NCBI GenBank assembly: GCA_030644725.1
Contig: CP130629.1
Span: 3,859,501-3,923,500 of the forward strand
Origin: Candidatus Electrothrix communis
Lineage (GTDB): Bacteria; Desulfobacterota; Desulfobulbia; Desulfobulbales; Desulfobulbaceae
Direction: 5' to 3'
DNA: 64,000 nt
The translations under genes were made by a program, and so were the position numbers. Position 1 is the first letter of the stretch. Each line of letters opens with the position of its first letter. Positions 4,582 to 61,491 of the stretch are shown here, in pieces. A model generated the notes under the pieces. That model saw only the letters and a list, made by a program, of their open reading frames with translations, was not told the DNA's origin and made no database searches.

Positions 4582-5565
4582 CTATTGATAAAAGATGCTG
4601 TCCCCATGGGCTCGTTTTTGTATGCGACCATCCTGTACAAGGGCTTCAAGCAGCAGCTCAACCTTTTTCGCTCCTCCCAGATGAAAGGTGCGATTGATAT
4701 CAGCGGCCGTACATGGCCGCCGTTTTAACATCTCGACAAGCTCAACCGTGAAGGCCTGTTTATCAGCTTCACGATCAAGATTGAAAAAAAACTTTTTCGG
4801 GTCTTCCGACTCGTCATCCTGGTTTGCTTTAAAGGCCAGCAGGTCAACGGGGCGTAAGGGGTTGTCTTCCTGGAATTGACGCGAAATGGCCGCCATGCTC
4901 TGTTTGTTCAGAGGGCGGGCAAAGGATTCCAGGGGTGGGCGGGCAACTGTATTCAGCTGGATGCGATCAAGCCGCATCCGATTGACTGCCTGGCGGAGTG
5001 CCGCCACTTCCTCGGCAGAATCGTTGATGCCCTCGACAAAGAGGATCTCCAGCCATATCTTTCCGTCATATTGACGGGAGAAGGTGACCATACCGTCAAT
5101 GACCTCTTCAAGGTCAACGCAGGCTGCCGGACGATCAATCTTTCTGAAGCCTGCGGGCAGAGCCGAGTCCAGCGAAGGAATCACCACGTCGGCCAGAGAC
5201 ATCTCTTGACGAACCTGAGGATCCGTGAGGGTTGTCCCGTTGGTCAGCACGGCAATCGGCTTTGCCGCAGTTTTTTTCAGATGCGCGATAATTTCCCCGA
5301 AATGTGCATGCAGCGTGGGTTCACCGCTGGCGGTCACCGTGATGAAATCCAGCTCGGCAACACGCTCCTGATCCAGACAAAAGGCGTCTATCTCCGCCTT
5401 GATGTCCCGGAACGGGGCATACTCTGCTCGTTCACAGGTCAAATGGACTGTGGCGCCGACTTCGCAATATATGCAGTTGAGGGTGCAGATTTTATCCTGG
5501 AAAAGATCCACTCCGAGAGAGCGTCCGAGTCGCCGGGAATTTACCGGACCGAAGATATGATTCAT
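4582..5565 (-). CDS. Radical SAM protein (COG0731-like)
   Basis: Radical SAM iron-sulfur enzyme of unknown substrate. The conserved start FGPVNSRRLGRSLGVDL precedes the cluster motif CTLNCIYC (CxxxCxxC), and VTASGEPTLH supplies the family's GEP-type SAM-binding stretch. The C-terminus has a winged-helix-like segment (RRPCTAADINRTF). The frame is open to a TTG at 5598 (338 codons), but no ribosome site supports that; I chose the internal ATG at 5565 because family members begin right before the FGPV motif. It lies 90 bp after the RNase E/G start on the same strand and probably forms its own transcript. The function in this family is not established. Confidence 0.85.
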   Translation of the reverse strand: MNHIFGPVNSRRLGRSLGVDLFQDKICTLNCIYCEVGATVHLTCERAEYAPFRDIKAEIDAFCLDQERVAELDFITVTASGEPTLHAHFGEIIAHLKKTAAKPIAVLTNGTTLTDPQVRQEMSLADVVIPSLDSALPAGFRKIDRPAACVDLEEVIDGMVTFSRQYDGKIWLEILFVEGINDSAEEVAALRQAVNRMRLDRIQLNTVARPPLESFARPLNKQSMAAISRQFQEDNPLRPVDLLAFKANQDDESEDPKKFFFNLDREADKQAFTVELVEMLKRRPCTAADINRTFHLGGAKKVELLLEALVQDGRIQKRAHGDSIFYQ

Positions 5566-5805
5566 AGAAAAAGCATAGGGCGCATCAGATGCTGCCAAGC
5601 ATCATATTAATGGAGCATTATACTACCGGAAGAATGGAAAATACAAGATCGGAATACGGAGTCCGAGTATTATCTTGAATACGTATAATATAACCGTTCG
5701 TCATAAAACAATTTATTGTTTTTGGCAAGGCTAATTTATCTGTTTTTTTGTTCGAAATATTGCAGAGCGTTTCAGTTGTCCCGGTACTTCCTTACTCCTT
5801 TTTCC

Positions 5806-5834
5806 TTGACACGAGAAGGTGGGGAGCGTAAATT
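5806..5834 (+). promoter_or_regulatory. Sigma-70-type promoter of the lptD transcript
   Basis: TTGACA at 5806-5811 and TAAATT at 5829-5834 are separated by exactly 17 nt. Transcription would begin near 5841, directly at the upstream ATG (5842) that lacks a ribosome site, which argues that translation starts further down at GTG 5908. Confidence 0.65.
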
Positions 5835-5907
5835 CGTGTAGATGACAACCTTGAATTTTCATAATTATTTCTTCCTCTTTCGAATAAAATTACAGGAGTA
5901 TATTGAG

Positions 5908-8406
5908 GTGCATTACCGAACCCCCTTTTTCCTCTTTATAACGGTTGGTTGTTTTCTGGGAGCATTTTGCATATTTAATCCCATAGATGCTCGTGCAGAG
6001 GCTGTCAGAGCGATGCAGTGGGAAATCACTGCTGATAAACTCACCAGGTTTGAAGACCCTGCCAGCGTAATCGCAGAAGGCAATGTTATCCTAAAAAAAA
6101 TAGAAAATATAACCGGGTCTGCTCAAGAAAAAAAGGGCAAAAAAGATTGGGGCGATCTTCTTGGTGAAGATACTTCGCCAGCGGACGAGAGCAACGATAC
6201 CAAAGATAGCCAGGCCGCTGACGCCCTCCCGAAGGAAGGTGGTGAAGCGTCATTGATCTCTCCGAAAAAAGCTCCTACCTTACAGGATGCGAATTTTGCG
6301 GATTCCGAGGAACAAGGGGAAACCGCTGAAGCAGATACGGATCAGGATGAGGAACAGGTTGTCGGTTCCGCTGTTATCAGCACCATCAAGGCGGATTGGG
6401 TGGTGTATGATATGGACCTGGGAACGGTCAAACTGCGTGGCAACGTGTTTCTTGATATTGGCCCGGATAAAGTGAGTGCCAGCGAGGGTGTTGTTCATCT
6501 GACCAGGGAAACGGCCTCGTTTACCGATGCAACTATTATCCGGCAGTATAAGGATATGCGTGTTGAAGGGCGGGTTATTGAGAAGACCGGAGAACTTACC
6601 TATCATATTGAAGACGGCTGGCTGATCACCTGTAAGCTGAAAGACGGGGAAAAACCTCCGTGGAGCTTCCATGCTGCTGATGCCGAAATCACCGACGGAG
6701 GGTATGCTTTTCTGAAACATGCTACCTTCCGAATCAAAGGGGTGCCTGTCCTGTACTCGCCTATTATGATGCTGCCTGCTAAGCGAAACCGTCAGACAGG
6801 TTTTCTCTTTCCTTCTGCTTCCCTGTCAGAGCGGGATGGGTTCAGTCTGGAGTGGCCGCTTTTTATAAACCTCTCTCCGAGCAGCGACATTACGCTGTAT
6901 CCCCATTATCTTGCCGAGCGGGGCTTCATGGCAGGGGCTGAAGCTCGTTATATGCTGGATCAGAATTCAAAGGGAACAGTGATTGCAAATTTCCTGAATG
7001 ACGATCTCAGCGATATCAATAATCCCGATAATGCTGAGTATTACGCCGAAGGCGGATACACCCATACCAATCAGAATCGCTATTGGGTACGAGGAAAGGC
7101 GGATCAGAAATTCGGTGGGTGGACAACTCGGCTTAATATTGATCTTGTTTCTGATCAGGATTATCTCGACGAATTCAGTAATGGCTATAGCGGGTACTCT
7201 GTGAGCGATCAGCGGTTTTCTGATCAGTTCGGACGTGGATTACAGGACAGAAATACTTATGAGCGAGAAAACAAGCTGACCACCCTTCGTTCCTGGTCCA
7301 ACGGAACCTCCCTAGAGGCAACGCTGAAAGGGATTGATGATCTGCGTGAATATAGTGATGACAGCGGCTCTACAGCGCTGTCGACATTTCCGGAGGTCAA
7401 ATACAGCGGTTTGGTTCCCTTGTATGACACGGACGTGGATTTTTCCTGGGATGCCAATTACGTTTATTATAAACGTGACGTGGGCGTGGAGGCGCAACGT
7501 ATTGACCTCCATCCTAAATTGAAAGTTGCCCTTCCCATGCTGAGTGAGTATCTGGAGACCACCGTCGGTGTAGGTGTCCGAGATACCATGTATATGATTG
7601 ATGATAATGGTGACGAGGATTGGCAGGATAGTGATAGCGAGAATCGTTTGCTTGCTGATGTGAACGGAGAAATCGCCACAACCTTGCGCAGGGATTTTTT
7701 GGGCAACGTCAAAGGGGGGGCTTCATGGAGCCATATACTACGACCTTTTGTTCGCTATACCTATGTAACAGATCCAGATGAGGATAATCTGCCGCTGTTT
7801 GACTCAGTCGACAGTATTGGTGATCAGAATCGGATTACCTACGGGTTGAATAATTTTTTCACTGTCTCCGAGATGAGAGATGATGAGGAGTATGAACGGG
7901 ATTACGGGTATATCAAGCTGCAACAGAACTATGATCTCCGTGACGTGGCCTCTGAGGAGCCTCTTTCTGATGTCCAATTCCGTCTCTCCTGGACTCCTTG
8001 GCAGAACATGAACTTCAAGTACTCCACTGATATTGATGTGTATGATAACGATTTTACACAGCATAGCGTTGAGAGCGATTACCGCAATAGTCGGGGCGAT
8101 TTGCTTTCTTTTGACTATCTCTTTTATGCCGGTGCCACTGATGAGGCAGAAGATACCAGTTCGATTAGGCTGTTTACCCGGATTAGTCTGATCTATGATT
8201 TTGCTATGGGCTATGCCCTGGAGCGGTCTATCGAAGATTCCGTGACCATAGCGGAGAAGGTCAGTCTGAGTTACAATCCTTCTTGCTGGTCAGTGGAACT
8301 GGTGGCTGATGTCACGCCGGATAACGAACAGATTATGGTCCTGTTCAAGTTGGCCAATATCGGCGCACCCTTTGGTGTGGACCTCATGGGAAGCAGTGAT
8401 GAATAG
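5908..8406 (+). CDS. lptD: LPS-assembly outer-membrane protein LptD
   Basis: LptD is the outer-membrane beta-barrel that, with LptE, inserts lipopolysaccharide into the outer leaflet. The N-terminal periplasmic OstA/LptA-like domain is visible (MQWEITADKLTRFEDPASVI, then VKLRGNVFLDIGPDKVSASE) and is interrupted by an acidic insert of about 100 residues. The conserved YSPIMMLPAKRNRQTGFLFP stretch marks the entry to the barrel. The frame is open from ATG 5842, but GTG at 5908 has AGGAG 9 nt upstream and gives a clean signal peptide ending near DARAEA; I prefer it (832 aa). It heads a run of + strand housekeeping genes. Its presence shows an LPS-bearing outer membrane. Confidence 0.92.
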   Translation: MHYRTPFFLFITVGCFLGAFCIFNPIDARAEAVRAMQWEITADKLTRFEDPASVIAEGNVILKKIENITGSAQEKKGKKDWGDLLGEDTSPADESNDTKDSQAADALPKEGGEASLISPKKAPTLQDANFADSEEQGETAEADTDQDEEQVVGSAVISTIKADWVVYDMDLGTVKLRGNVFLDIGPDKVSASEGVVHLTRETASFTDATIIRQYKDMRVEGRVIEKTGELTYHIEDGWLITCKLKDGEKPPWSFHAADAEITDGGYAFLKHATFRIKGVPVLYSPIMMLPAKRNRQTGFLFPSASLSERDGFSLEWPLFINLSPSSDITLYPHYLAERGFMAGAEARYMLDQNSKGTVIANFLNDDLSDINNPDNAEYYAEGGYTHTNQNRYWVRGKADQKFGGWTTRLNIDLVSDQDYLDEFSNGYSGYSVSDQRFSDQFGRGLQDRNTYERENKLTTLRSWSNGTSLEATLKGIDDLREYSDDSGSTALSTFPEVKYSGLVPLYDTDVDFSWDANYVYYKRDVGVEAQRIDLHPKLKVALPMLSEYLETTVGVGVRDTMYMIDDNGDEDWQDSDSENRLLADVNGEIATTLRRDFLGNVKGGASWSHILRPFVRYTYVTDPDEDNLPLFDSVDSIGDQNRITYGLNNFFTVSEMRDDEEYERDYGYIKLQQNYDLRDVASEEPLSDVQFRLSWTPWQNMNFKYSTDIDVYDNDFTQHSVESDYRNSRGDLLSFDYLFYAGATDEAEDTSSIRLFTRISLIYDFAMGYALERSIEDSVTIAEKVSLSYNPSCWSVELVADVTPDNEQIMVLFKLANIGAPFGVDLMGSSDE

Positions 8407-8439
8407 AAGGCGACGAGGATCACAGCCTGGAGCTTCACA

Positions 8440-9414
8440 ATGAACTCTCTTGATGTGTTTAACGGCGATGCCGACGGTATCTGTGCCCTTCACCAACTGC
8501 GCCTGCATGAGCCTCGTCCGGACGCCCGATTGCTCAGTGGGGTAAAGCGAGATATCGCCCTGCTTGAACAGGTAACCGAGGTGAGCAATACTGCACTCAC
8601 GGTCCTTGATATTTCCCTTGATCGGAACAGAGAAAGCCTGGAAAAGATCCTGGCTGGCGGGAACACGGTATTCTATGCGGATCATCATTACGCTGGTGAA
8701 CTCCCGAACTCGGAACGCCTCACAACTCATATTGACCCACAGCCTCTGATCTGCACCTCGTTGATAATCAATCAGCTCCTTGCAGGGAAATACGCCCTCT
8801 GGGCGGTTGTCGGTGCCTTTGGCGATAATCTTGATGAAGTGGCTGAACAGCTTGCTCGGCAATTAGGGGTTGACCAGGCCGCCCTTATCCTGCTCAGGGA
8901 AACAGGGATTCTGCTGAACTATAACGGCTATGGCGCATCGTTGGAGGATCTCTTTTTTGATCCTGTTGAGCTCTTTCGCCAGGTGCAGCCTTATGCAGAC
9001 CCGCGCGATTTTTATGCTGATGCAGCTGCATTGCGGACCCTGAAGCAGGGGTATCAGGACGATATGGAGCAGGCAATGTCCTTTGACCCTATGCATCAGG
9101 ACAGCTCTGGACGTGTTTATCAGCTGCCTGCTGAGGCCTGGTCTCGAAGGGTGGCAGGAGTATACTCCAATACCTTGGCCCGGCAAAAACCAGAACTCGC
9201 CCATGCCCTCCTGACGGAAAACGATGACCAATCTCTGCGCATCAGTGTGCGTGCTCCTCTGCGTCATCGCAATGGAGCCGATGTTCTTTGCCGCCAGTTT
9301 CCCAGCGGCGGCGGTCGAGCTGCGGCCGCCGGAATCAATGCCCTGCCTCCAGAGCAGCTTGATGATTTTATCAGGGCCTTCAGCGAGCAGTTCCATACGT
9401 CTGATTCTGTTTGA
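8440..9414 (+). CDS. DHH superfamily phosphoesterase
   Basis: A 324-residue protein with the DHH-family motifs: NGDADGICA near the N-terminus (motif I, Mn-binding), VLDISLDRN (motif II) and ADHHYAG (motif III, the DHH signature). The C-terminus carries FPSGGGRAAAAGIN, the DHHA1 substrate-binding motif. DHH proteins cleave phosphodiester or pyrophosphate bonds in nucleotides or short oligonucleotides; the substrate here cannot be told from sequence. It is shorter than RecJ and lacks NrnA-specific features that I could pick out. It lies 33 bp after lptD and 30 bp before the transglycosylase, so co-transcription is likely. Confidence 0.85.
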   Translation: MNSLDVFNGDADGICALHQLRLHEPRPDARLLSGVKRDIALLEQVTEVSNTALTVLDISLDRNRESLEKILAGGNTVFYADHHYAGELPNSERLTTHIDPQPLICTSLIINQLLAGKYALWAVVGAFGDNLDEVAEQLARQLGVDQAALILLRETGILLNYNGYGASLEDLFFDPVELFRQVQPYADPRDFYADAAALRTLKQGYQDDMEQAMSFDPMHQDSSGRVYQLPAEAWSRRVAGVYSNTLARQKPELAHALLTENDDQSLRISVRAPLRHRNGADVLCRQFPSGGGRAAAAGINALPPEQLDDFIRAFSEQFHTSDSV

Positions 9415-9444
9415 TCCAAGCTCTCCTTTCACCCTTTATTTATT

Positions 9445-10503
9445 ATGAGATTTCGTTGCGGTTATTCTGTTTGCTCCCTTTGTATCGCCTGCCTCCTGTT
9501 TCTTTTCTTTGCAATAGGCGAGGCGAAACCGGTCCCGACCATACTTGTCGAAGACGGGCAACCTGTTAACCTGCAACAGCAAAAATATAAGAAATTGTTC
9601 CAGGAATTGGAGCAGGAGCATAAGTTCCCGCCCACTGAGCTGGAGATGATCTTCCAGGGGCAGAAAATTTCCAAACGAGTGCTTGAGCTGATGGACAAGC
9701 AATGGAAACGACGCCCTTATTATGAATATTTCCCTCTTTTTCTTACCCCGAAGACTATTCGGACCGGTAAGGCGAAACTTCGGATGCACAGGGAGTTGTT
9801 GGATCGAATAGAAAAGAAATTCGGTGTAGCACGGGAAGTCATCGTGGCCATCTGGGGTATAGAAACCCGTTACGGTGCTAACCAGGGCGGATTTAATATC
9901 CTCCAGACCCTGAATACCCTGTTTGATGCCTATCCCAGGCGGGCGGAGTTCTTTCGCAAGGAGCTGATCCAGTTTCTCATTCTCTGCCGGGAGCACGGTG
10001 TTGATCCGAAAACGGCTGTAGGCTCCTATGCTGGCGCCTTTGGTCAGGCTCAGTTCATGCCCTCTTCGTTCCGTCGTTTTGCTGTTAGCTTTGACGGTAA
10101 TGAGCAATGTGATCTCTGGAATTCCGTACCCGATGCCTTGGCCTCCATTGCAAATTATCTAAAGGTACACGGTTGGCAACAGGGAACGCCTGTGTACGTG
10201 GAACTCGGCAATACGCTGAAGGATAAGCGGCTGATTACCGCTCAGGAGGAAGGCCGGAAAGGGCGCGTTCCTTGGGATCTTGTCTGGGAAGTGCAAAAAA
10301 CAGTGCAAAAAAAAGATATTCCTCCCTCACCGGGCAGGCTGCCTCTTTCTATCATCGGTTTAGAACTTAATCCGAAAACATCAAAGCATGCTTATCGCTA
10401 TGTTGCCGGTTATCCCAATTTCCACACCATTACGGAGTATAACCATTCACTCTTCTATGGAATGGCTGTCAGTGAATTGGCAGAGCAGCTGAAGGAAAAA
10501 TAG
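9445..10503 (+). CDS. Lytic murein transglycosylase, MltB type
   Basis: A 352-residue exported enzyme that cleaves peptidoglycan glycan strands to 1,6-anhydro products. A signal peptide (CSLCIACLLFLFFAIGEAK) is followed by the MltB/SltB fold: catalytic Glu in AIWGIETRYGANQGG, then GSYAGAFGQAQFMPSSF and WNSVPDALASIANYL, all diagnostic. No lipobox Cys is obvious right after the signal segment, so a soluble periplasmic or Cys-anchored state cannot be decided. It lacks a C-terminal peptidoglycan-binding domain that I recognise. It is downstream of the DHH gene in the same + strand run. Confidence 0.92.
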   Translation: MRFRCGYSVCSLCIACLLFLFFAIGEAKPVPTILVEDGQPVNLQQQKYKKLFQELEQEHKFPPTELEMIFQGQKISKRVLELMDKQWKRRPYYEYFPLFLTPKTIRTGKAKLRMHRELLDRIEKKFGVAREVIVAIWGIETRYGANQGGFNILQTLNTLFDAYPRRAEFFRKELIQFLILCREHGVDPKTAVGSYAGAFGQAQFMPSSFRRFAVSFDGNEQCDLWNSVPDALASIANYLKVHGWQQGTPVYVELGNTLKDKRLITAQEEGRKGRVPWDLVWEVQKTVQKKDIPPSPGRLPLSIIGLELNPKTSKHAYRYVAGYPNFHTITEYNHSLFYGMAVSELAEQLKEK

Positions 10504-10572
10504 GCACCTTCTTTGTTGAGAAATTCCTCATAACATAACCACGTATTTTATATCTTTAACACATCTCTAGCT

Positions 10573-11340
10573 ATGGAACGATCGCGATCCAATCGATTTT
10601 ATGCCCTTCCCAGCATGCTGACCTGTACCAGTCTGTTTAGCGGATTTTACTCCATAGTAGCTTCAATTAATGGAGATTTTTTTCCTGCTGCTGTGGCGAT
10701 TCTGGTGGCTGGGCTCTTTGACGGGCTGGACGGACGAGTTGCCCGTTTAACAGACTCCACCTCACGCTTCGGTATGCAGCTGGATTCCCTTTGTGACCTG
10801 GTTTCCTTTGGTGTTGCCCCTGCGCTCCTTGCCTATCTCTGGGCTTTGATCCCCTATGGACGATACGGCTGGTTGGCGGCTTTCTTGTACGTGGCCACCA
10901 CTGCTTTGCGTTTGGCTCGATTTAATTCCATGGCCGAGGAGTCGGAGGATGAAGATCATGAAAAGGATGAAAATCATGATTTTGTCGGCCTGCCTTGTCC
11001 GGCTGCAGCCGGGGCCATTGCAACCATGGTGATGTTTTTTCGGTATCTGGGAACGACCGATCCTGTGAAACATTTTTCCATTCTCTTGCTGGTCTATCTG
11101 CTCTCCTATCTGATGATCTCAACCCATCGTTATCTGAGCTTTAAGAAAACCAGGGTTCCCAAGGAAAAGCGTTTTCAGGCCGTTGTTGGTATGGTCCTGA
11201 TTCTGATCCTTTTGGCGACAGAGCCTCCTGTTACCTTGTTTGTTACGACATTATTGTATGCTCTCTCTGGTTTAATATTGGAGCTGTACGCTTTTTTGCG
11301 GAAAAGAAAGGAAACAGCAAGGCAAGAAAAGCTGAACTGA
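10573..11340 (+). CDS. pssA: CDP-diacylglycerol--serine O-phosphatidyltransferase
   Basis: Integral membrane enzyme that makes phosphatidylserine, the precursor of phosphatidylethanolamine, from CDP-diacylglycerol and serine. The CDP-alcohol phosphatidyltransferase signature DG(x)2AR(x)8G(x)3D(x)3D is fully present (DGRVARLTDSTSRFGMQLD followed by SLCD). Several hydrophobic segments span the rest, and an acidic loop (EESEDEDHEKDE) sits in the middle. The 255-residue length fits the Gram-positive-like PssA class rather than the soluble E. coli enzyme. It is 70 bp after the transglycosylase gene and 27 bp before rsmD. Confidence 0.93.
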   Translation: MERSRSNRFYALPSMLTCTSLFSGFYSIVASINGDFFPAAVAILVAGLFDGLDGRVARLTDSTSRFGMQLDSLCDLVSFGVAPALLAYLWALIPYGRYGWLAAFLYVATTALRLARFNSMAEESEDEDHEKDENHDFVGLPCPAAAGAIATMVMFFRYLGTTDPVKHFSILLLVYLLSYLMISTHRYLSFKKTRVPKEKRFQAVVGMVLILILLATEPPVTLFVTTLLYALSGLILELYAFLRKRKETARQEKLN

Positions 11341-38681: not shown

Positions 38682-38978
38682 GTGCAGCTTGACAGCGTAT
38701 TCAGAAAGGCCGATAATATCGTCAGTAGGAAGGTGATGGATGAAACTCTGCTTGTGCCCATTTCGGGTGAGCTGGCGTCCATGGATAATCTGTACTCTCT
38801 GAATGAAACCGGAGCCTTTATCTGGGGGGCACTGGACGGCTCCCGACCTCTTGTTGAAATAGGGAGGCAGTTAGGACAGATATACGACGCAGATGCGACG
38901 AAGATTGAAGCGGATCTGATGGAGATCATTGCTGAGTTGTCGGAGTCGGGTTTGGTTGTGGAAACTGCCGAGAATTGA
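38682..38978 (+). CDS. PqqD-like RiPP recognition protein
   Basis: A 98-residue PqqD-family protein, the RiPP recognition element that binds a precursor leader and presents it to a radical SAM enzyme. The match is in VPISGELASMDNLYSLNETG, then AFIWGALDGSRPLVEI and the helical tail EADLMEIIAELSESGLVV. It starts at GTG 38682 with a strong GAGGAGGGGG site just before. It ends 6 bp before the radical SAM gene, so the two are one translational unit. Confidence 0.88.
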   Translation: MQLDSVFRKADNIVSRKVMDETLLVPISGELASMDNLYSLNETGAFIWGALDGSRPLVEIGRQLGQIYDADATKIEADLMEIIAELSESGLVVETAEN

Positions 38979-38984
38979 GGCGTC

Positions 38985-40130
38985 ATGACAAAGGAGAAAG
39001 ATTGCTTCGGGTCGGGAGAAACAGATATCGCCCGGTATTTTGCCAAGGCCGCCACATCGCGAATACCCTTGTCCGCTTCCTTTGAGCTGACGCATCGGTG
39101 TAGTTTTCGTTGTGTTCATTGCTATCTTGGTGATCAGAAAAGTATTCGCAGGCATCAACACAGGGAACTGAAGAAGGAAAAAGTATTTCGTCTGCTGGAC
39201 GAGATGGTTGAGGCCGGGACGTTGTTTCTCCTGTTGACCGGAGGCGATCCGATGCTCCGTTCAGATTTTGTGGAAATATATAAATATGCGGTTCGGTCTG
39301 GATTGCTGGTGACGGTTTTTTGTAACGGTTCCTTGGTGACTGATGAAATTGTCAGGGTCTTTGTCGAATATCCTCCGAGAGTAGTGGAGATAACAGTCTA
39401 TGGAGCAAAGCCTGAGACCTTTGATGCTGTAACACAGCAGTTGGGTTCTTTCTCCGTCTGTGTGGCAGGAATAGAACGTTTGCGAAGGGCGAGAGTGCGC
39501 CTGCGACTGAAGACTATGGTGTTAACTGTAAATGTGGATGAGTTTCCTGCTATCCGACAGCTGGCTTTGGATATGGGGTTGCAGTTTCGCCATGATTGCT
39601 CCCTGCATGCCGCAATAGCTCATGAGGATAATAACGGACGCTCGAATATCGGTACTGCTGAGAGTAGCTTGACTGACCCGCTCCGGTATCGTCTTGCGCC
39701 GGAACAGGCAGCCGCTGTTGATTTGAGTATTGAAAAGTTTACACATGAATTGGCTGAAGGGGTAAAAAAAGTATGTCCGAAAGAATCCACGGAGCAATTG
39801 TACTCCTGCGGAGCAGGGAAGTCGTCATACCATATCGATCCCTATGGAATGCTACAGCCCTGTTTAACAGTTCAGTCGCATAGCTTTGATGTCAACAAGA
39901 AAGGAGTATTTCAGGCTGGCTGGGAGGGGTTGCTTAGGGATTTTATATCATGCACGGCATCAGCATCTTTTCCCTGTAATAATTGTAGAAATAGAGTGTT
40001 ATGTACGTCATGTCCGGCTGTTTTTGCCGCAGTATCAGGAGATCCAGAGCTGGTAGATCCTTTTTACTGTCGTTATGCGGAAAAACGTCGAGATAATATT
40101 GTTGCATTCAGGAGAAAACACAGTGGATAA
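38985..40130 (+). CDS. Radical SAM/SPASM peptide maturase
   Basis: A 381-residue radical SAM enzyme. The cluster motif CSFRCVHC is at Cys39, Cys43, Cys46, with LTGGDPMLR as the GGE-like SAM site. The C-terminal SPASM region carries the auxiliary-cluster cysteines: one in LYSCGAGKSSYH, one in GMLQPCLTV, then a CNNCRNRVLCTSCP run and a final Cys in DPFYCRY. Radical SAM/SPASM enzymes beside PqqD proteins modify ribosomal peptides (thioether, C-C or epimerised residues). The 3' end overlaps the start of the probable precursor gene by 8 bp. The modification type cannot be predicted. Confidence 0.92.
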   Translation: MTKEKDCFGSGETDIARYFAKAATSRIPLSASFELTHRCSFRCVHCYLGDQKSIRRHQHRELKKEKVFRLLDEMVEAGTLFLLLTGGDPMLRSDFVEIYKYAVRSGLLVTVFCNGSLVTDEIVRVFVEYPPRVVEITVYGAKPETFDAVTQQLGSFSVCVAGIERLRRARVRLRLKTMVLTVNVDEFPAIRQLALDMGLQFRHDCSLHAAIAHEDNNGRSNIGTAESSLTDPLRYRLAPEQAAAVDLSIEKFTHELAEGVKKVCPKESTEQLYSCGAGKSSYHIDPYGMLQPCLTVQSHSFDVNKKGVFQAGWEGLLRDFISCTASASFPCNNCRNRVLCTSCPAVFAAVSGDPELVDPFYCRYAEKRRDNIVAFRRKHSG

Positions 40131-40314
40131 CGTAAAAAGATCAGTTCAATTTTCAGAAACGGCTCAAACAGATAATGCTCGAAAGCAACCTTATGTAAAA
40201 CCGAGCATGAAAACCATTTCTCTGTTTGCTGATGAGGTGCTGGTCGGTTGCGGCAAACTCACTACAGACCCAGTTCCAGAAGGTGGCTGTGGGCTTGCTA
40301 TAAGCAGTTCTTGA
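40123..40314 (+). CDS. Probable RiPP precursor peptide
   Basis: A 63-codon gene starting at GTG 40123, with AGGAG at 40110-40114, overlapping the radical SAM stop; the ATG at 40075 upstream lies deep in the maturase and lacks a site. The product has a charged leader, then PYVKPSMKTISLFADEVLVG (residues 23-42) and a short tail with two cysteines (Cys43, Cys56), GG at 54-55 and a Ser-Ser-Ser C-terminus. The KPxxx..LFADEVL..GC pattern resembles leaders of other PqqD/radical SAM peptides. The kinase-like gene starts on its last base. No homology search could be run, so the call rests on position, size and composition. Confidence 0.78.
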   Translation: MDNVKRSVQFSETAQTDNARKQPYVKPSMKTISLFADEVLVGCGKLTTDPVPEGGCGLAISSS

Positions 40315-41285
40315 TGGAAAAAAATGAGGTTGTCTCTGGAAATTTAAAAGATTCTAACGAGTTGTTTGGTTCTGTAAAAGTGCAAAATAGGGAGGATGTG
40401 GACCGGGAAATTTTTTTTACTTATTCCATAGGAGGAATGTGCATTAATATTGGGGGAGCCTTGCTGAATATAGAGATACAGGCTTGCCCGTCCGAATATA
40501 AGCGTTTTTTTCGCTCCGTCAATATGTCTGGAGCGGATGTTCATATCAGTATGGACAAAACATCGGAACCGTATGAAGCTGTTTCTGGAGATGTAATCTT
40601 TCTTAATCGACATATCAAAGTTCAGGCTACCGAAGACGGGTTTCAAGTCTATAGGTTTCGGGATGGACAGCAGGAAACACCATATTTAATTATCCGAACA
40701 GATCAATATTTTTCCCGCTTTCATTATTGTTTTTATTCGGATGTCGAGCAGGGGCTCTGTTACAAACTGGCGGCCGATCAATTTCTTCTTCAACATAGTT
40801 TTATTAACCATCAAGGGTTGTTGATTCATGCTGGTGGAGGGATTGTTCAGGGGAAGGGTATGATTTTTTCCGGAACGTCAGGTGCTGGCAAATCCACCCT
40901 CAGTGAATTGCTGTGTTCCTCTCCAAAGAACCAATTCTTTAGTGATGAACGTTTGGTTATCCGTTTTGCCGATGAGAGGTGGAATGTGTGGGGAACCCCG
41001 TGGCAGAGTACCGGAAATATTGCTCGCAATGAAACAGCTCCTCTTTCAGCATTAGTTTTTTTGAAGCAAGGTGAAATGACAAAAATCACCGAATTGACCC
41101 CGTCGCAAGGTCTGCATCGTTTCCTGCAAGTGGTATCCATTCCTTGGTACAGTGAAGAATGGACGAACAAAGGTCTTGCTGTCTGCGAGCCCTTGGTTCA
41201 GGAGATTCCGATGTTTGAATTGACCTTTCGGGCAGATGAATCAGCAGTGCAGGCAGTGGAAGAACTGGCGTCGGGGTTGCCGTAA
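40314..41285 (+). CDS. HPr kinase-like P-loop protein of the RiPP cassette
   Basis: A 323-residue protein starting at ATG 40314, overlapping the precursor stop by one base (TGATG). The N-terminal 150 residues are unassigned. The C-terminal part is HprK/P-like: FSGTSGAGKSTLSELL (Walker A, residues about 187-194), then FFSDERLVIR where HprK has its acidic D-D site, and GTPWQSTGNIARNE typical of HprK-related proteins in peptide cassettes. Relatives phosphorylate the C-terminal Ser of lasso peptides or have unknown roles in PqqD-linked clusters. The precursor here ends in three serines, so C-terminal Ser phosphorylation is a testable guess. Confidence 0.8.
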   Translation: MEKNEVVSGNLKDSNELFGSVKVQNREDVDREIFFTYSIGGMCINIGGALLNIEIQACPSEYKRFFRSVNMSGADVHISMDKTSEPYEAVSGDVIFLNRHIKVQATEDGFQVYRFRDGQQETPYLIIRTDQYFSRFHYCFYSDVEQGLCYKLAADQFLLQHSFINHQGLLIHAGGGIVQGKGMIFSGTSGAGKSTLSELLCSSPKNQFFSDERLVIRFADERWNVWGTPWQSTGNIARNETAPLSALVFLKQGEMTKITELTPSQGLHRFLQVVSIPWYSEEWTNKGLAVCEPLVQEIPMFELTFRADESAVQAVEELASGLP

Positions 41286-41347
41286 AGAATCCCCATGCAG
41301 AAGAAATAATGTGCTGATCGGCACCGTGTTATTGGGGTGTATCGAAT

Positions 41348-41926
41348 GTGACTGTGTCCGCTAGTGAAAGACCGACTTCAACCGGCTCTTCTTCTTCAAA
41401 CCGGCAATCACCGCCGGGCCGAGAGCGACCTCGCACTGACTCTTCTGTCATCAGTATACGGAATCAGGGGGCTCTTGATCTTGTTCGGCTTCTTCTTGAT
41501 CAGGGCGTGGCTGTGCGTATCCGGGTGTCAGGAAAATCCATGAAACCGACCTTACTCGGCGGTGAAACCGTCCAGATTTCCTCTCTTGGCGGACAACGTC
41601 CACGGATCGGAGACATTCTTTTGCTCTGTGACCGGCAGGGCAATCTCTTGATCCACCGTCTGATCAGGCGGCAATCCTGTGAGGGTAGACACTATGTGCA
41701 GACGAAAGGAGATGCCTGTTTCGGCTGCGATAAATCTGTTCCTTTAGAACAGGTTATAGGCCGCGTCAGTTATATTTTTTCTCCTTGCGAGTCCCCTAAA
41801 AAAGAAGGGAGAGATAGCTCGAAAAATCTTACTGCACCTTTTATGCGATTAAAGTCAATTTTTATCGTTGCTCGTTTTGTTACCTTCTATTGCTTGCGTA
41901 AAGCAGGTTCTGTTTGGTCGTTGTAA
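41348..41926 (+). CDS. S26-family (SipW-like) signal peptidase-like protein
   Basis: A 192-residue protein starting at GTG 41348 after GGGGTG. The peptidase signature is VSGKSMKPTL (Ser64), LLIHRLIRR (His103) and VQTKGDACFGCD, i.e. the Ser-His type of S26 peptidase seen in archaeal/SipW enzymes rather than the Ser-Lys LepB type. The first 35 residues are Ser/Arg/Pro-rich and unconserved. A hydrophobic stretch near 170-185 may anchor it. It is the last gene of the PqqD/radical SAM cassette, 62 bp after the kinase-like gene, and could cleave the leader from the modified peptide or another exported product. Confidence 0.82.
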   Translation: MTVSASERPTSTGSSSSNRQSPPGRERPRTDSSVISIRNQGALDLVRLLLDQGVAVRIRVSGKSMKPTLLGGETVQISSLGGQRPRIGDILLLCDRQGNLLIHRLIRRQSCEGRHYVQTKGDACFGCDKSVPLEQVIGRVSYIFSPCESPKKEGRDSSKNLTAPFMRLKSIFIVARFVTFYCLRKAGSVWSL

Positions 41927-42210: not shown

Positions 42211-42438
42211 AGAATGTTATCAATAATCATTTTCCCCTCCTCACTACTTCCTTTTCTCTCTTGCCTCATTTCTTCGTTATCAGTACCATTTAAGTGTAAG
42301 GATGTTTTCTGGGGTTTTGTCATGGACTAACGCTTCAATATTACGTTTATCGATCAGATAAATATGCAATGCTGGAACGGTGCTTTTTTAAGTTATGATT
42401 TTGAGTGCGACCGATATTCTAGGACAAGGAGGAGTAAG

Positions 42439-43218
42439 ATGTATACGGGGAAGAGAGGTAAAAGTTTAGCACGTTTTTTTCAAGTCTGGATCGCTACAAT
42501 AGTTCTAGTTAGTTTTTCTATAAACACTGGTGAAGCCCAGGAAGCTCCGACTGGTGGGTCAATATCGGGAAAAATAACAAATGGTACAGCGGGCATTGCT
42601 GGTGTTTATGCGCAGGCGTTTCAGGGGGTGGAGTGGAAGGGGAATGCTCCTGTAACAACCGGTGACGGTATATACAAAATTGAAGGTTTAGCGGACGGGG
42701 AATATATTGTGCGCTTTTGGGCGCAGGAAACGGATTTTATCACCCGTTGGTACAGTGATTCAAATGTGAACGGCGTCGATTATAACGATGCTACGCCTGT
42801 TACGGTTAGCGGTGGAAATGACACGCCGGGTATTGATATTCAATTACCTCTGGGGGGAAGCATTTCCGGGCAAGTAGTCAACGATACAGGTTGTGAGTCT
42901 GGAAAGATCGAAAATTTAGAGATAAAGGTATATGATACCTTGGGTATTTTAAGAGGCATTACCAGAACTGCTTCTTTGGAGGAGGGGGGTTTTTTTACGG
43001 TCACCGGCTTGCCCATCGGAGAGGACATGAAAATATTCATCTGGGATAGGGATGGATCTCAAGTCGAAGAATGGTATCAGGATGCAGCTGATTTTGCTAG
43101 CGCTACACTTGTTCCTGTTCCTCCGTCAACGGGAATTACGGTGAATTTCTGTTCTCTCAAACCGTTCAACTGGCTTCTCTTCCTCCCGGCAATTACTCAC
43201 CAGCCTACTGCACCATGA
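42439..43218 (+). CDS. Exported protein with two carboxypeptidase-regulatory-like beta-sandwich repeats
   Basis: A 259-residue protein from ATG 42439 (AAGGAGGAG just upstream; the frame to 42364 lacks a site). A signal peptide ends near NTGEAQ. Two repeats of about 95 residues follow, each beginning GGSISG and ending in a WY..D motif: RWYSDSNVNGVDYNDATPV and EWYQDAADFASATLV. These are CarboxypepD_reg/SdrD-like beta-sandwiches common in surface proteins. A hydrophobic WLLFLPAI stretch near the C-terminus may be an anchor. The function is unknown; the upstream MITE-like element separates it from the RiPP cassette. Confidence 0.75.
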   Translation: MYTGKRGKSLARFFQVWIATIVLVSFSINTGEAQEAPTGGSISGKITNGTAGIAGVYAQAFQGVEWKGNAPVTTGDGIYKIEGLADGEYIVRFWAQETDFITRWYSDSNVNGVDYNDATPVTVSGGNDTPGIDIQLPLGGSISGQVVNDTGCESGKIENLEIKVYDTLGILRGITRTASLEEGGFFTVTGLPIGEDMKIFIWDRDGSQVEEWYQDAADFASATLVPVPPSTGITVNFCSLKPFNWLLFLPAITHQPTAP

Positions 43219-43246: not shown

Positions 43247-43816
43247 ATGGGAGAGGCAGCAAAACGCTACGCAGTATACGAAGACCTTTTCGACTTACCC
43301 GACCATTTGGTCGGAGAGATTCTTAACGGAGTGTTGGAAACCCATCCGCGACCGGCTCCGCGCCATGCAAGAGCCTCATCTTCATTAGGGGGGAAGATTG
43401 TTACCCCGTATGATCACGGCCAGGGCGGGCCGGGAGGCTGGTGGATTCTTGACGAGCCTGAGCTGCATCTGGATGTCGATATAATGGTTCCCGATCTGGC
43501 GGGCTGGCAACGGGAGCGCATGCCGGAACTCCCTGAAACCGCTTGGTTTGAATGCGTGCCGGATTGGGTCTGTGAGGTGCTTTCGCCCTCAACGGGCAAG
43601 ACGGACCGTGCGGTCAAAATGCCCTTGTATGCGCATTACGGAGTCCAGTATTTGTGGCTGGTTGATCCGGACTTGCAGATTCTGGAAGCCTATAAACTGC
43701 AAACTGAATCGTCGGGCAATAAATGGGTGCTGCTCAAAACATTGCGGGATGATCAAAGCGTCTCCTTGCCGCCCTTTACAGAAACCAGTTTTGATTTATC
43801 CGTGTTATGGGCATAG
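43247..43816 (+). CDS. Uma2-family putative endonuclease
   Basis: A 189-residue PD-(D/E)XK protein. The Uma2 pattern is clear: KRYAVYEDLFDLPDHLVGEI, the D in VDIMVPDLAGW, CEVLSPSTGKTDRAVK (E.....K core) and YGVQYLWLVDPDLQILEAY. These proteins are very common, often multicopy, and their role is not settled. It is followed within a few bases by a strong terminator. It lies 28 bp after the previous gene. Confidence 0.93.
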   Translation: MGEAAKRYAVYEDLFDLPDHLVGEILNGVLETHPRPAPRHARASSSLGGKIVTPYDHGQGGPGGWWILDEPELHLDVDIMVPDLAGWQRERMPELPETAWFECVPDWVCEVLSPSTGKTDRAVKMPLYAHYGVQYLWLVDPDLQILEAYKLQTESSGNKWVLLKTLRDDQSVSLPPFTETSFDLSVLWA

Positions 43817-60725: not shown

Positions 60726-60946
60726 TACTCTATCCTCCTTTTTTTTCTGAAAAAAATGAGTATGCCTTTGCGTGATTTTAATTCTCTTGTCCTTTTCATA
60801 AGTCGGTTTAAAAGGGCTGGGGAGGAGGGGTTCAAGCAAAAGGGATGGCTATCCATATGGCCAGCGGGTTGGGCCGCACAGATTTCTCTGTTCATTGATG
60901 TCATAATTCGATACTTCCAGACAGCAAGAAGGACAAGAAGTACAAG

Positions 60947-61022
60947 ATGGCAACCCGGCGGTCTCCTCCCGAGAGATCCGTGGCTTTCCGACACCGCCTC
61001 ACGACGGCTGTGGCTTTATCAG
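60947..61022 (-). ncRNA. Candidate c-di-GMP-I (GEMM-I) riboswitch
   Basis: Read on the minus strand, the segment has GATAAAGCCAC, then a P2 hairpin GCCGTC/GGCGGT closed by a GTGA (GNRA) tetraloop, then CGGAAAGCCACGGATCT, a short P3 stem (TCTC/GAGA), and CGCCGGGTTGCC. The core AAAGCCACGG..CT and GCCGGGTTGCC match the GEMM-I consensus as I remember it, and the GNRA loop fits its tetraloop. The 5' GGCAAACC part is degenerate (GATAAAGCC). It lies about 220 nt before the PhnD-like gene. No covariance search was possible. Confidence 0.55.
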
Positions 61023-61491
61023 CTCTCCATTTTCGACGGAAAGCAGGGCGCTTGCTTTATGAATACGCTCAACCCTTTGTTATATAATCAGGCATGGTGG
61101 GTAAAAAAGTCAAGTTTTTTTGTAGATACTGAGGGAGGGTTGCTGATGTGTATTTTTTGTAGAGAATGAAAGGAGAGAGCCTACTTGTGGTGAGAGGAAT
61201 GTCGTTTTTTAGTATAATATGTTTTGTATCAATGTGTTGACTTGGTCATGCTGTTCTCGTTGCATCGCGTAACGATACGGGGGCTTTTCGGCCTGTACTT
61301 TCTGTTGCATCATAAGGGGTCAGTTTTCTTTTTTGATTGAGTAAAAAGAATCCAGTGCGAGCGAAATGTTTCCGGGAGGGAGGGAAGTGGATTCATTTTT
61401 CTGATTTTTTTCGTAAGATAGCGCCATGAAATGACAGGTTGAGCTGGGGCAGGATGCAAAGAATATCTTCTTGGCTTGAGGGAGTTTTCTC

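What the first reader, a model, noticed from the sequence alone, without database searches (positions are those of the whole stretch)
38682..41926. Compact RiPP cassette: PqqD, radical SAM/SPASM, 63-aa precursor, HprK-like protein, S26 peptidase
Seen: five + strand genes, the first four with 6-bp gap, 8-bp and 1-bp overlaps, three of them with GTG starts. Known: PqqD-type recognition proteins plus radical SAM/SPASM enzymes modify ribosomal peptides. Inferred: the 63-residue ORF is the substrate, the S26 protein cuts the leader, and the HprK-like protein adds a further step. I know of related sets (for example SynChlorMet and GeoRSP types), but this exact combination with a SipW-type peptidase may be undescribed.
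Basis: partly seen in the sequence, partly recalled or inferred. Interest (0 to 1): 0.88.

Follow-up and report, generated by a model that had tools for sequence, protein, structure and literature searches.

The report
Radical-SAM peptide cassette with terminal-serine kinase
A cable-bacterium genome carries a conserved gene set that probably modifies a small peptide, phosphorylates the serine at its very end and cuts it free, a combination that joins two known kinds of modified peptides and makes a kinase step directly testable.

Summary
The five genes are real and at the stated places. They form a RiPP cassette in a genome I assign to Candidatus Electrothrix (a same-genus genome has exactly the published size of Ca. 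E. scaldis). The 63-aa ORF is a true precursor: relatives hold YEKPxLxxVxLFADQVLxGC...C...S at the same place. A model built from leaders alone found 41 precursors near both an HprK-like and a radical SAM gene; 38 end in Ser (background 11%). Seven complete precursors from SynChlorMet-type cassettes, which also carry an HprK-like gene, never end in Ser, so the serine belongs to this class. Known lasso kinases of the same family phosphorylate a C-terminal Ser, and LPP peptides (2026) use the same recognition protein, kinase and S26-type leader peptidase. Best reading: PqqD presents the leader, radical SAM/SPASM modifies the Cys-containing core, the kinase phosphorylates the last Ser, S26 removes the leader. 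The chemistry and the role are unproven. New variant of a known kind.

The parts
   Evidence: Pfam PF01364 E 9.9e-70 at residues 1712-2053; signal-like N-terminus by eye; next to PqqD in ten of ten orthologous loci, window included; one of only two C25 matches in this genome, both beside such cassettes
38682..38978 (+). PqqD-type RiPP recognition element (RRE)
   Evidence: PF05402 E 8.1e-15; N41 and D78 each at 95% in 38 relatives and present here, the same spacing of 37 residues as N33/D70 of LppB
38985..40130 (+). radical SAM/SPASM maturase
   Evidence: PF04055 E 1.4e-21; C39, C43, C46 in 43 of 43 sequences; seven SPASM cysteines at 93-100%
40123..40314 (+). 63-aa precursor peptide (GTG start, AGGAG upstream)
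   Evidence: orthologues at the same place in relatives; leader-only model score 44.6 (this leader was in the model)
40192..40248 (+). leader motif YVKPSMKTISLFADEVLVG (residues 24-42), RRE-binding YxxP
   Evidence: alignments A1-A4; YxxP is the RRE-binding motif in LPP and lasso leaders
40249..40311 (+). variable core with two invariant Cys (C43, C56) and the C-terminal Ser63 (codon 40309-40311)
   Evidence: two Cys in 33 of 33, 32 of 33 end in Ser; 38 of 41 in the leader-only set
40314..41285 (+). HprK/PEPCK-fold kinase, proposed to phosphorylate the C-terminal Ser
   Evidence: H172, S189, G192, K193, T195 invariant in 31 of 31; model pLDDT 90; PEPCK Z 13.5, HprK/P 1kkl E 1.4e-4
41348..41926 (+). 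SipW/archaeal-type S26 peptidase, proposed leader peptidase
   Evidence: TIGR02228 E 6.6e-11; S64 90%, H103 100%, D122 100% in 31 sequences; highest 19-residue hydropathy 1.41, so probably no membrane span
42364..43218 (+). secreted carboxypeptidase-regulatory-like protein with C-terminal FNWLLFLPAI tail, syntenic in relatives; role unknown
   Evidence: PF13620 E 1.5e-5, below cut-off; related genes in 7 of the 8 orthologous loci that reach this far; in L042 only a 15-residue tail match to another protein

Best explanation
A RiPP cassette. The PqqD-like protein holds the YxxP leader of the 63-aa precursor and presents it. The radical SAM/SPASM enzyme modifies the Cys-containing core (a crosslink at the two invariant Cys is the likeliest outcome). 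The HprK/PEPCK-fold kinase phosphorylates the C-terminal Ser, once or several times. The S26-type Ser/His/Asp peptidase, probably soluble, then removes the leader somewhere in the stretch DEVLVG|C: at V39-L40 by analogy with LPP spacing, or just before C43. Shown here: conserved genes, leader motif, cysteines, terminal Ser, and intact catalytic residues of the three enzymes. Inferred: every reaction, their order, the cut site, and any link of the product to the C25 surface peptidase.
For: Precursor orthologues with YEKPxLxxVxLFADQVLxGC..C..S. A leader-only model run without any filter on the ending: 38 of 41 precursors near HprK and radical SAM end in Ser, one-per-locus 31 of 33, against 435 of 3847 small ORFs; 9 of 11 among those first recognised after the model was built (counted). 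The distance from the second Cys to the end varies, so what is conserved is the end itself. Seven complete SynChlorMet-type precursors: 0 end in Ser. Radical SAM-HprK fusion proteins in L081, L118, L120, L140. Lasso HprK homologues phosphorylate C-terminal Ser (PMC8498205, passages). LPP: RRE + HprK kinase + SpI-type peptidase shown by gene deletion and cleavage assay (PMC13381572, sections 6, 11, 12 and passages). HprK model. SPASM and S26 residues.
Against: No chemistry was observed. Three precursors with both genes near do not end in Ser (L041 ...AIAA, L117 ...KCN, L120 ...GVC). HprK-like genes also sit beside precursors without a terminal Ser: SynChlorMet types and the LPP-like locus L159 (...GISGGLP), and LppK phosphorylates an internal Ser, so kinase presence alone does not predict the site. 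L056 and L149 have kinase, PqqD and S26 genes but I recognised no precursor. The 41 rows are related by descent, and 26 of the leaders that built the model come from loci scanned, so the chance figure overstates independence. No exporter is evident in the window.
Confidence: 0.7

Rival explanations
1. The HprK-like protein phosphorylates the Ser only as an intermediate: the phosphate primes a further transfer (nucleotidyl or sugar) or peptide attachment, so the final product is not a plain phosphopeptide.
For: NTP_transf_5 genes lie beside related cassettes L051, L075, L080, L081 and L159, and relatives of them in L053, L076, L077, L079, L140; the LPP and paeninodin systems carry NTP transferases and pseudomycoidin is phosphoglycosylated.
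Against: No NTP transferase relative in the 64-kb window or in the fetched stretches of the nine orthologous loci L039-L047; one encoded elsewhere in the genome is not excluded.
Confidence: 0.25
2. The kinase acts on an internal Ser/Thr or on another protein, as LppK does on core Ser3; the C-terminal Ser is conserved for another reason, for example docking to the maturase or export.
For: LppK phosphorylates an internal Ser; SynChlorMet-type precursors have HprK-like neighbours and no terminal Ser; seven of ten leader-model hits without a kinase gene nearby also end in Ser, though six of them are in G449 and G434, of which G449 has a kinase fusion elsewhere.
Against: No internal Ser is conserved in the aligned cores, only the last residue; characterised lasso kinases choose the C-terminal Ser.
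Confidence: 0.2
3. A cofactor or redox peptide (PQQ/mycofactocin-like) rather than a secreted peptide: PqqD + radical SAM/SPASM, no exporter, no immunity gene recognised.
For: No ABC signature string in window ORFs of 150 aa or more; the radical SAM matches AhbD, NirJ2 and mycofactocin maturase models among its best, all far below cut-off.
Against: Cores are highly variable between species, up to two precursors per locus, unlike a conserved cofactor; related loci L054 and L118 have MsbA-like exporters.
Confidence: 0.15

Closest known systems
Linear polyphosphorylated peptides, LPP (Popov et al. 2026, PMC13381572)
   Same: discrete PqqD-type RRE, YxxP leader, HprK-like kinase, SipW-type peptidase with Ser/His/Asp; some related cassettes also with NTP_transf_5 and MsbA-like genes, and some beside polysaccharide genes
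   Different: no radical SAM enzyme in what I read (0 hits for 'radical' in its main text), reported as restricted to Bacillota, other leader consensus, phosphate on core Ser3; here a SPASM enzyme, two invariant Cys, terminal Ser, no NTP transferase in the window
Paeninodin-type phosphorylated lasso peptides
   Same: YxxP/WxxP leader, PqqD-type B1, HprK-like kinase, C-terminal Ser (PMC8498205 and PMC13381572, passages and sections)
   Different: no macrolactam synthetase and no B2 peptidase among the eight proteins scanned; radical SAM and S26 instead
SynChlorMet cassette (NCBIfam TIGR04248-04251)
   Same: PqqD, radical SAM/SPASM, usually HprK-like and S26, YxxP precursor where I recognised one
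   Different: two radical SAM enzymes in most loci; the window's kinase, PqqD and radical SAM score far below its cut-offs; its precursors, as I read them, are Cys repeats that do not end in Ser; nine of its kinases form a separate set in the tree
Sactipeptides/ranthipeptides
   Same: SPASM radical SAM acting on Cys-containing cores (recalled; titles in the listing)
   Different: no PqqD + kinase + S26 set that I know of (recalled); thioether not shown here

Membership tests
RiPP (general) | conserved small precursor with constant leader and variable core next to RRE and maturase | tested here: met
LPP | discrete RRE + HprK-like kinase + SpI-type peptidase with Ser/His/Asp | tested here: met
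   SpI model score 42.3 is below its cut-off 51.85
LPP | leader consensus YxxPxVLxHQxIxFETxxS | tested here: not met
   YxxP shared, the rest is LFADQVLxGC or EEAVLxxC
LPP | NTP transferase and MsbA-like transporter in the core set | tested here: not met
   no BLAST hit to two NTP transferases and no ABC signature string in window ORFs of 150 aa or more
LPP | linear peptide without a core-modifying cyclase | tested here: inconclusive
   a radical SAM/SPASM gene is in the cassette, but whether the product is linear is unknown
Lasso peptide | asparagine-synthetase-like cyclase and B2 peptidase | tested here: not met
   no such match among the eight proteins scanned
Phosphorylated lasso kinase group | C-terminal Ser on the precursor | tested here: met
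   window precursor ends in Ser63; 38 of 41 in the class
SynChlorMet | ScmC, ScmD, ScmE, ScmF models over cut-off | tested here: not met
   21.0/125, 18.3/100, 82.3/400, 60.9/400 bits
GeoRSP | GeoRSP PqqD and radical SAM models over cut-off | tested here: not met
   14.5/100 and 58.1/400 bits
HprK/PEPCK-fold kinase | fold and P-loop/His residues | tested here: met
   a shared fold does not show activity
Sactipeptide/ranthipeptide | thioether crosslink at Cys | not testable with these tools
   needs mass spectrometry

The most novel reading that the evidence does not exclude
A separate RiPP class, spread through the phylum, defined by radical SAM core chemistry plus phosphorylation of the last Ser, whose product works at the cell surface together with the co-encoded C25 (gingipain/PorU-fold) peptidase and the tail-bearing secreted proteins: the phosphorylated end would be a handle by which the C25 enzyme recognises, attaches or is controlled by the peptide on the cable-bacterium envelope.
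Probability: 0.12. Interest if true: 0.85.

Novelty: new variant of a known kind. Interest (0 to 1): 0.64.

Why it matters
It joins two lines of peptide chemistry, radical SAM maturation and HprK-type phosphorylation, in one cassette and points to one residue, the last Ser, that can be tested in a single mass-spectrometry experiment. It defines a precursor family that no Pfam or NCBIfam model named in my scans. It also opens a question about cable bacteria: why this genome keeps two such cassettes, each beside one of its only two C25 genes.

Tried and rejected
SynChlorMet and GeoRSP membership: rejected on model scores. Lasso peptide: no cyclase or B2 among the proteins scanned. Defence system: the PADLOC scan gave only viperin models against the radical SAM enzyme (best E 4.2e-14); read as superfamily likeness, not a defence assignment. 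Precursor as a known family: matches are scattered; the best are Pfam DARPP-32 for 2 of 21 (E 2.1e-4) and NCBIfam tryglysin RiPP for 2 of 33 (E 0.047), not believed; Pfam was run on 21 of the 33. Close relatives on plasmids: 305 records match the radical SAM protein, all under 60% identity, best listed 30%. The scan of genome contigs gave one locus, L038, whose contig name and length fit G001. Single-sequence fold of the kinase: pLDDT 30, not used; refolded with 31 sequences. HprK/P is not in the 50 VIA-align rows shown; it is in Foldseek's list at rank 47. Y/W in the leader against RRE residues N41/D78: no co-variation, 8 of 10 W loci keep both. RRE-Finder paper: no hit for kinase, HPr or S26. 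Cable-bacteria papers: term look-ups in PMC11976967 and PMC13047784 found no radical SAM, PqqD or gingipain text; 'cable bacteria' with 'radical SAM' gave one paper, seen only in the listing. Statements that something is not described rest in open-licence papers only.

Selection of rows: I printed small ORFs only if they ended in S, T, A, C or N, and picked 11 of the 33 precursors of A3 from that print (a twelfth, L083, was near-identical to L058); therefore the leader-only rerun used no filter on the ending and scanned all ORFs of 22-130 aa in the window stretch and 49 loci. Rows under score 12 were dropped; the L058 and L083 precursors (both end in Ser) are not among the rows printed there. 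L072's precursor (ends LGS) lies in an ORF longer than 130 aa and is not in the 41. L168's repeat precursor runs off its contig and is not in the seven; L172 holds a further Cys-repeat precursor ending in G, not in the seven; L185 of the seven comes from a genome whose ScmE score (366.7) is under the cut-off of 400. In the other nine of the 18 fetched loci I recognised no precursor. The kinase tree labelled as terminal-Ser class all 37 kinases, also those of L056 and L149, which have no recognised precursor, and L117 and L120, whose precursors do not end in Ser.
Full report
Observation. The PqqD and radical SAM proteins pass Pfam cut-offs; the HprK-like and S26-like proteins match their families below cut-off and were checked by residues and, for the kinase, by fold.

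Host. The window lies in a 4,845,585-base single-contig genome. I infer that the genus is Candidatus Electrothrix, cable bacteria; a second genus, g10, may be Electronema (inference only).

Distribution. A radical SAM orthologue at 48-72% identity with the cassette around it is in 7 of 8 genomes of the genus, own included (G006, 69% complete, lacks it), and in 3 of 5 genomes of g10. More distant cassettes were found in other families of the phylum. The order in the orthologous loci is C25 peptidase, PqqD, radical SAM, precursor, HprK-like, in 6 of the 9 fetched loci a secreted protein of about 210 aa, then S26 and a second secreted protein where the stretch reaches that far. In G026 and G040 one precursor sits between PqqD and radical SAM and a second after it.

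Precursor. Fourteen precursors from the orthologous loci align as YEKPxLxxVxLFADQVLxGC...C with a variable tail. Thirty-three across the phylum keep one Pro and two Cys without exception, and 32 of 33 end in Ser. Because some of these were picked from a print filtered on the last residue, I built a model from 27 leaders only and reran it over all ORFs of 22-130 aa in the window stretch and 49 loci without that filter. Of 52 hits at score 12 or more, 41 lie within 8 kb of both an HprK-like and a radical SAM gene; 38 of these end in Ser, one each in A, N and C. One per locus: 31 of 33. One further hit near a kinase but no radical SAM ends in R and does not look like a precursor (L149). Of 3847 ORFs of 40-110 aa in the same loci 435 end in Ser (11.3%). 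Rows are related, so the tiny binomial figure printed there is not a true probability. Among hits first recognised after the model was built, 9 of 11 end in Ser (L114, L115 twice, L116, L118, L148 twice, L054 at 12290, L140 at 4819; not L117, L120). Of ten hits without a kinase gene nearby, seven end in Ser: six in genomes G449 and G434 and one in G213; G449 has a radical SAM-kinase fusion elsewhere.

Contrast set. SynChlorMet-type loci were found by TIGR04250 (over cut-off in 17 of 395 genomes) and 18 were fetched. Thirteen of 18 have an HprK-like gene, in two of them in one frame with S26; 11 of the 13 have an S26-like gene. I recognised YxxP precursors in eight loci; seven are complete, all seven loci have an HprK-like gene, and none ends in Ser; they are rich in Cys and Gly, mostly as repeats such as CTAGxxxxxxCTAG. 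A tree of 51 kinases sets nine SynChlorMet kinases apart on a long, fully supported branch; the terminal-Ser loci are not shown to be one clade. Thus the terminal Ser marks one class of kinase-bearing cassette, not all.

Enzymes. Radical SAM: the three cluster cysteines in 43 of 43 and seven SPASM cysteines at 93-100%. S26: Ser64 90%, His103 and Asp122 100% in 31, matching the S29/H68/D93 set shown by mutation to be needed in LppS (PMC13381572, section 11); the window protein has no strongly hydrophobic stretch. Kinase: H172, S189, G192, K193, T195 invariant in 31; the AlphaFold model with 31 sequences has pLDDT 90 and matches PEPCK (Z 13.5, 249 aligned, 5.1 A, 12% identity) and L. casei HprK/P (E 1.4e-4). 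In L081, L118, L120 and L140 radical SAM and kinase are one protein of 655-671 aa, which supports a shared pathway.

Mechanism. Lasso kinases of the HprK family phosphorylate the hydroxyl of the C-terminal Ser (PMC8498205, passages). In LPP the RRE, kinase and SpI-type peptidase were shown to act on a YxxP precursor, with the RRE needed for cleavage (PMC13381572: sections 6, 11, 12 read in full, abstract and outline, others by passage). The window cassette has all three plus a SPASM enzyme. I therefore propose: RRE binding, radical SAM change of the Cys core, phosphorylation of Ser63, leader removal. Each reaction is inferred. LPP cleavage lies 16 residues after the motif Tyr, counting it, which would be V39-L40 here; a cut before C43 fits the mostly small residues there as well.

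C25. In this genus 13 strong PF01364 matches (E below 1e-50) were found in 8 genomes. Ten lie beside a cassette: nine with the radical SAM set and one (L159) with an LPP-like HprK-PqqD-S26-NTP transferase set that has no SPASM gene of this family, only a radical SAM-methyltransferase fusion on the other strand. Two were checked and have no cassette (L160, L161), one (G005:451203) was not fetched. In the window's genome both C25 matches are of this kind. C25 genes also sit beside cassettes in L048, L073, L078 and L114 and L050, from other genera. The link is strong in position and unknown in function.

Known or new. LPP, phosphorylated lasso peptides and SynChlorMet each share parts. I found no text describing radical SAM together with this kinase and terminal Ser in the searches listed under Tried and rejected, which cover open-licence papers only. 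I rate it a new variant of a known kind.

Noticed in passing
L058 (G000:C1:3010000-3024000), about 5507-11159: Second cassette in the same genome: C25, precursor ending LGS, HprK-like, PqqD, radical SAM, with S26 on the other strand; near-identical copy in G006 (L083).
   Followed up: partly
window 43160-43218; L040, L042, L045, L046, L047, L151: Secreted proteins beside the cassette end in a hydrophobic tail like FNWLLFLPAI; the similar words NNWLLYLPAI follow the signal-like stretch of another secreted protein (L151). Possibly an envelope sorting or docking tag.
   Followed up: partly
L159 (G002:C73:30000-48000): LPP-like set HprK, PqqD, S26, NTP transferase directly after a C25 gene in a cable bacterium, with a YESP small ORF that does not end in Ser; LPP was reported as restricted to Bacillota.
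   Followed up: partly
L170, L173, L174, L175, L180, L182, L185: Likely SynChlorMet-type precursors: YxxP leader followed by Cys/Gly-rich, mostly repetitive cores, 47-78 aa.
   Followed up: partly
L117 (G537:C1): A lasso-like set (PqqD, small protein, HprK-like, asparagine synthetase) lies next to a radical SAM/HprK cassette, as LPP and lasso clusters do in Bacilli; I recognised no lasso precursor there.
   Followed up: partly
L077 6494-7687: S26 peptidase fused to a methyltransferase domain.
   Followed up: no
window 43247-43816; L040 2764-3924: Uma2-type protein 89-93% identical between species and tandemly doubled in G003, more conserved than the cassette genes beside it.
   Followed up: no
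window 60946-61024: c-di-GMP-I riboswitch, minus strand.
   Followed up: no
L056 and L149: Kinase, PqqD and S26 genes (radical SAM too in L056) but no recognised precursor.
   Followed up: no
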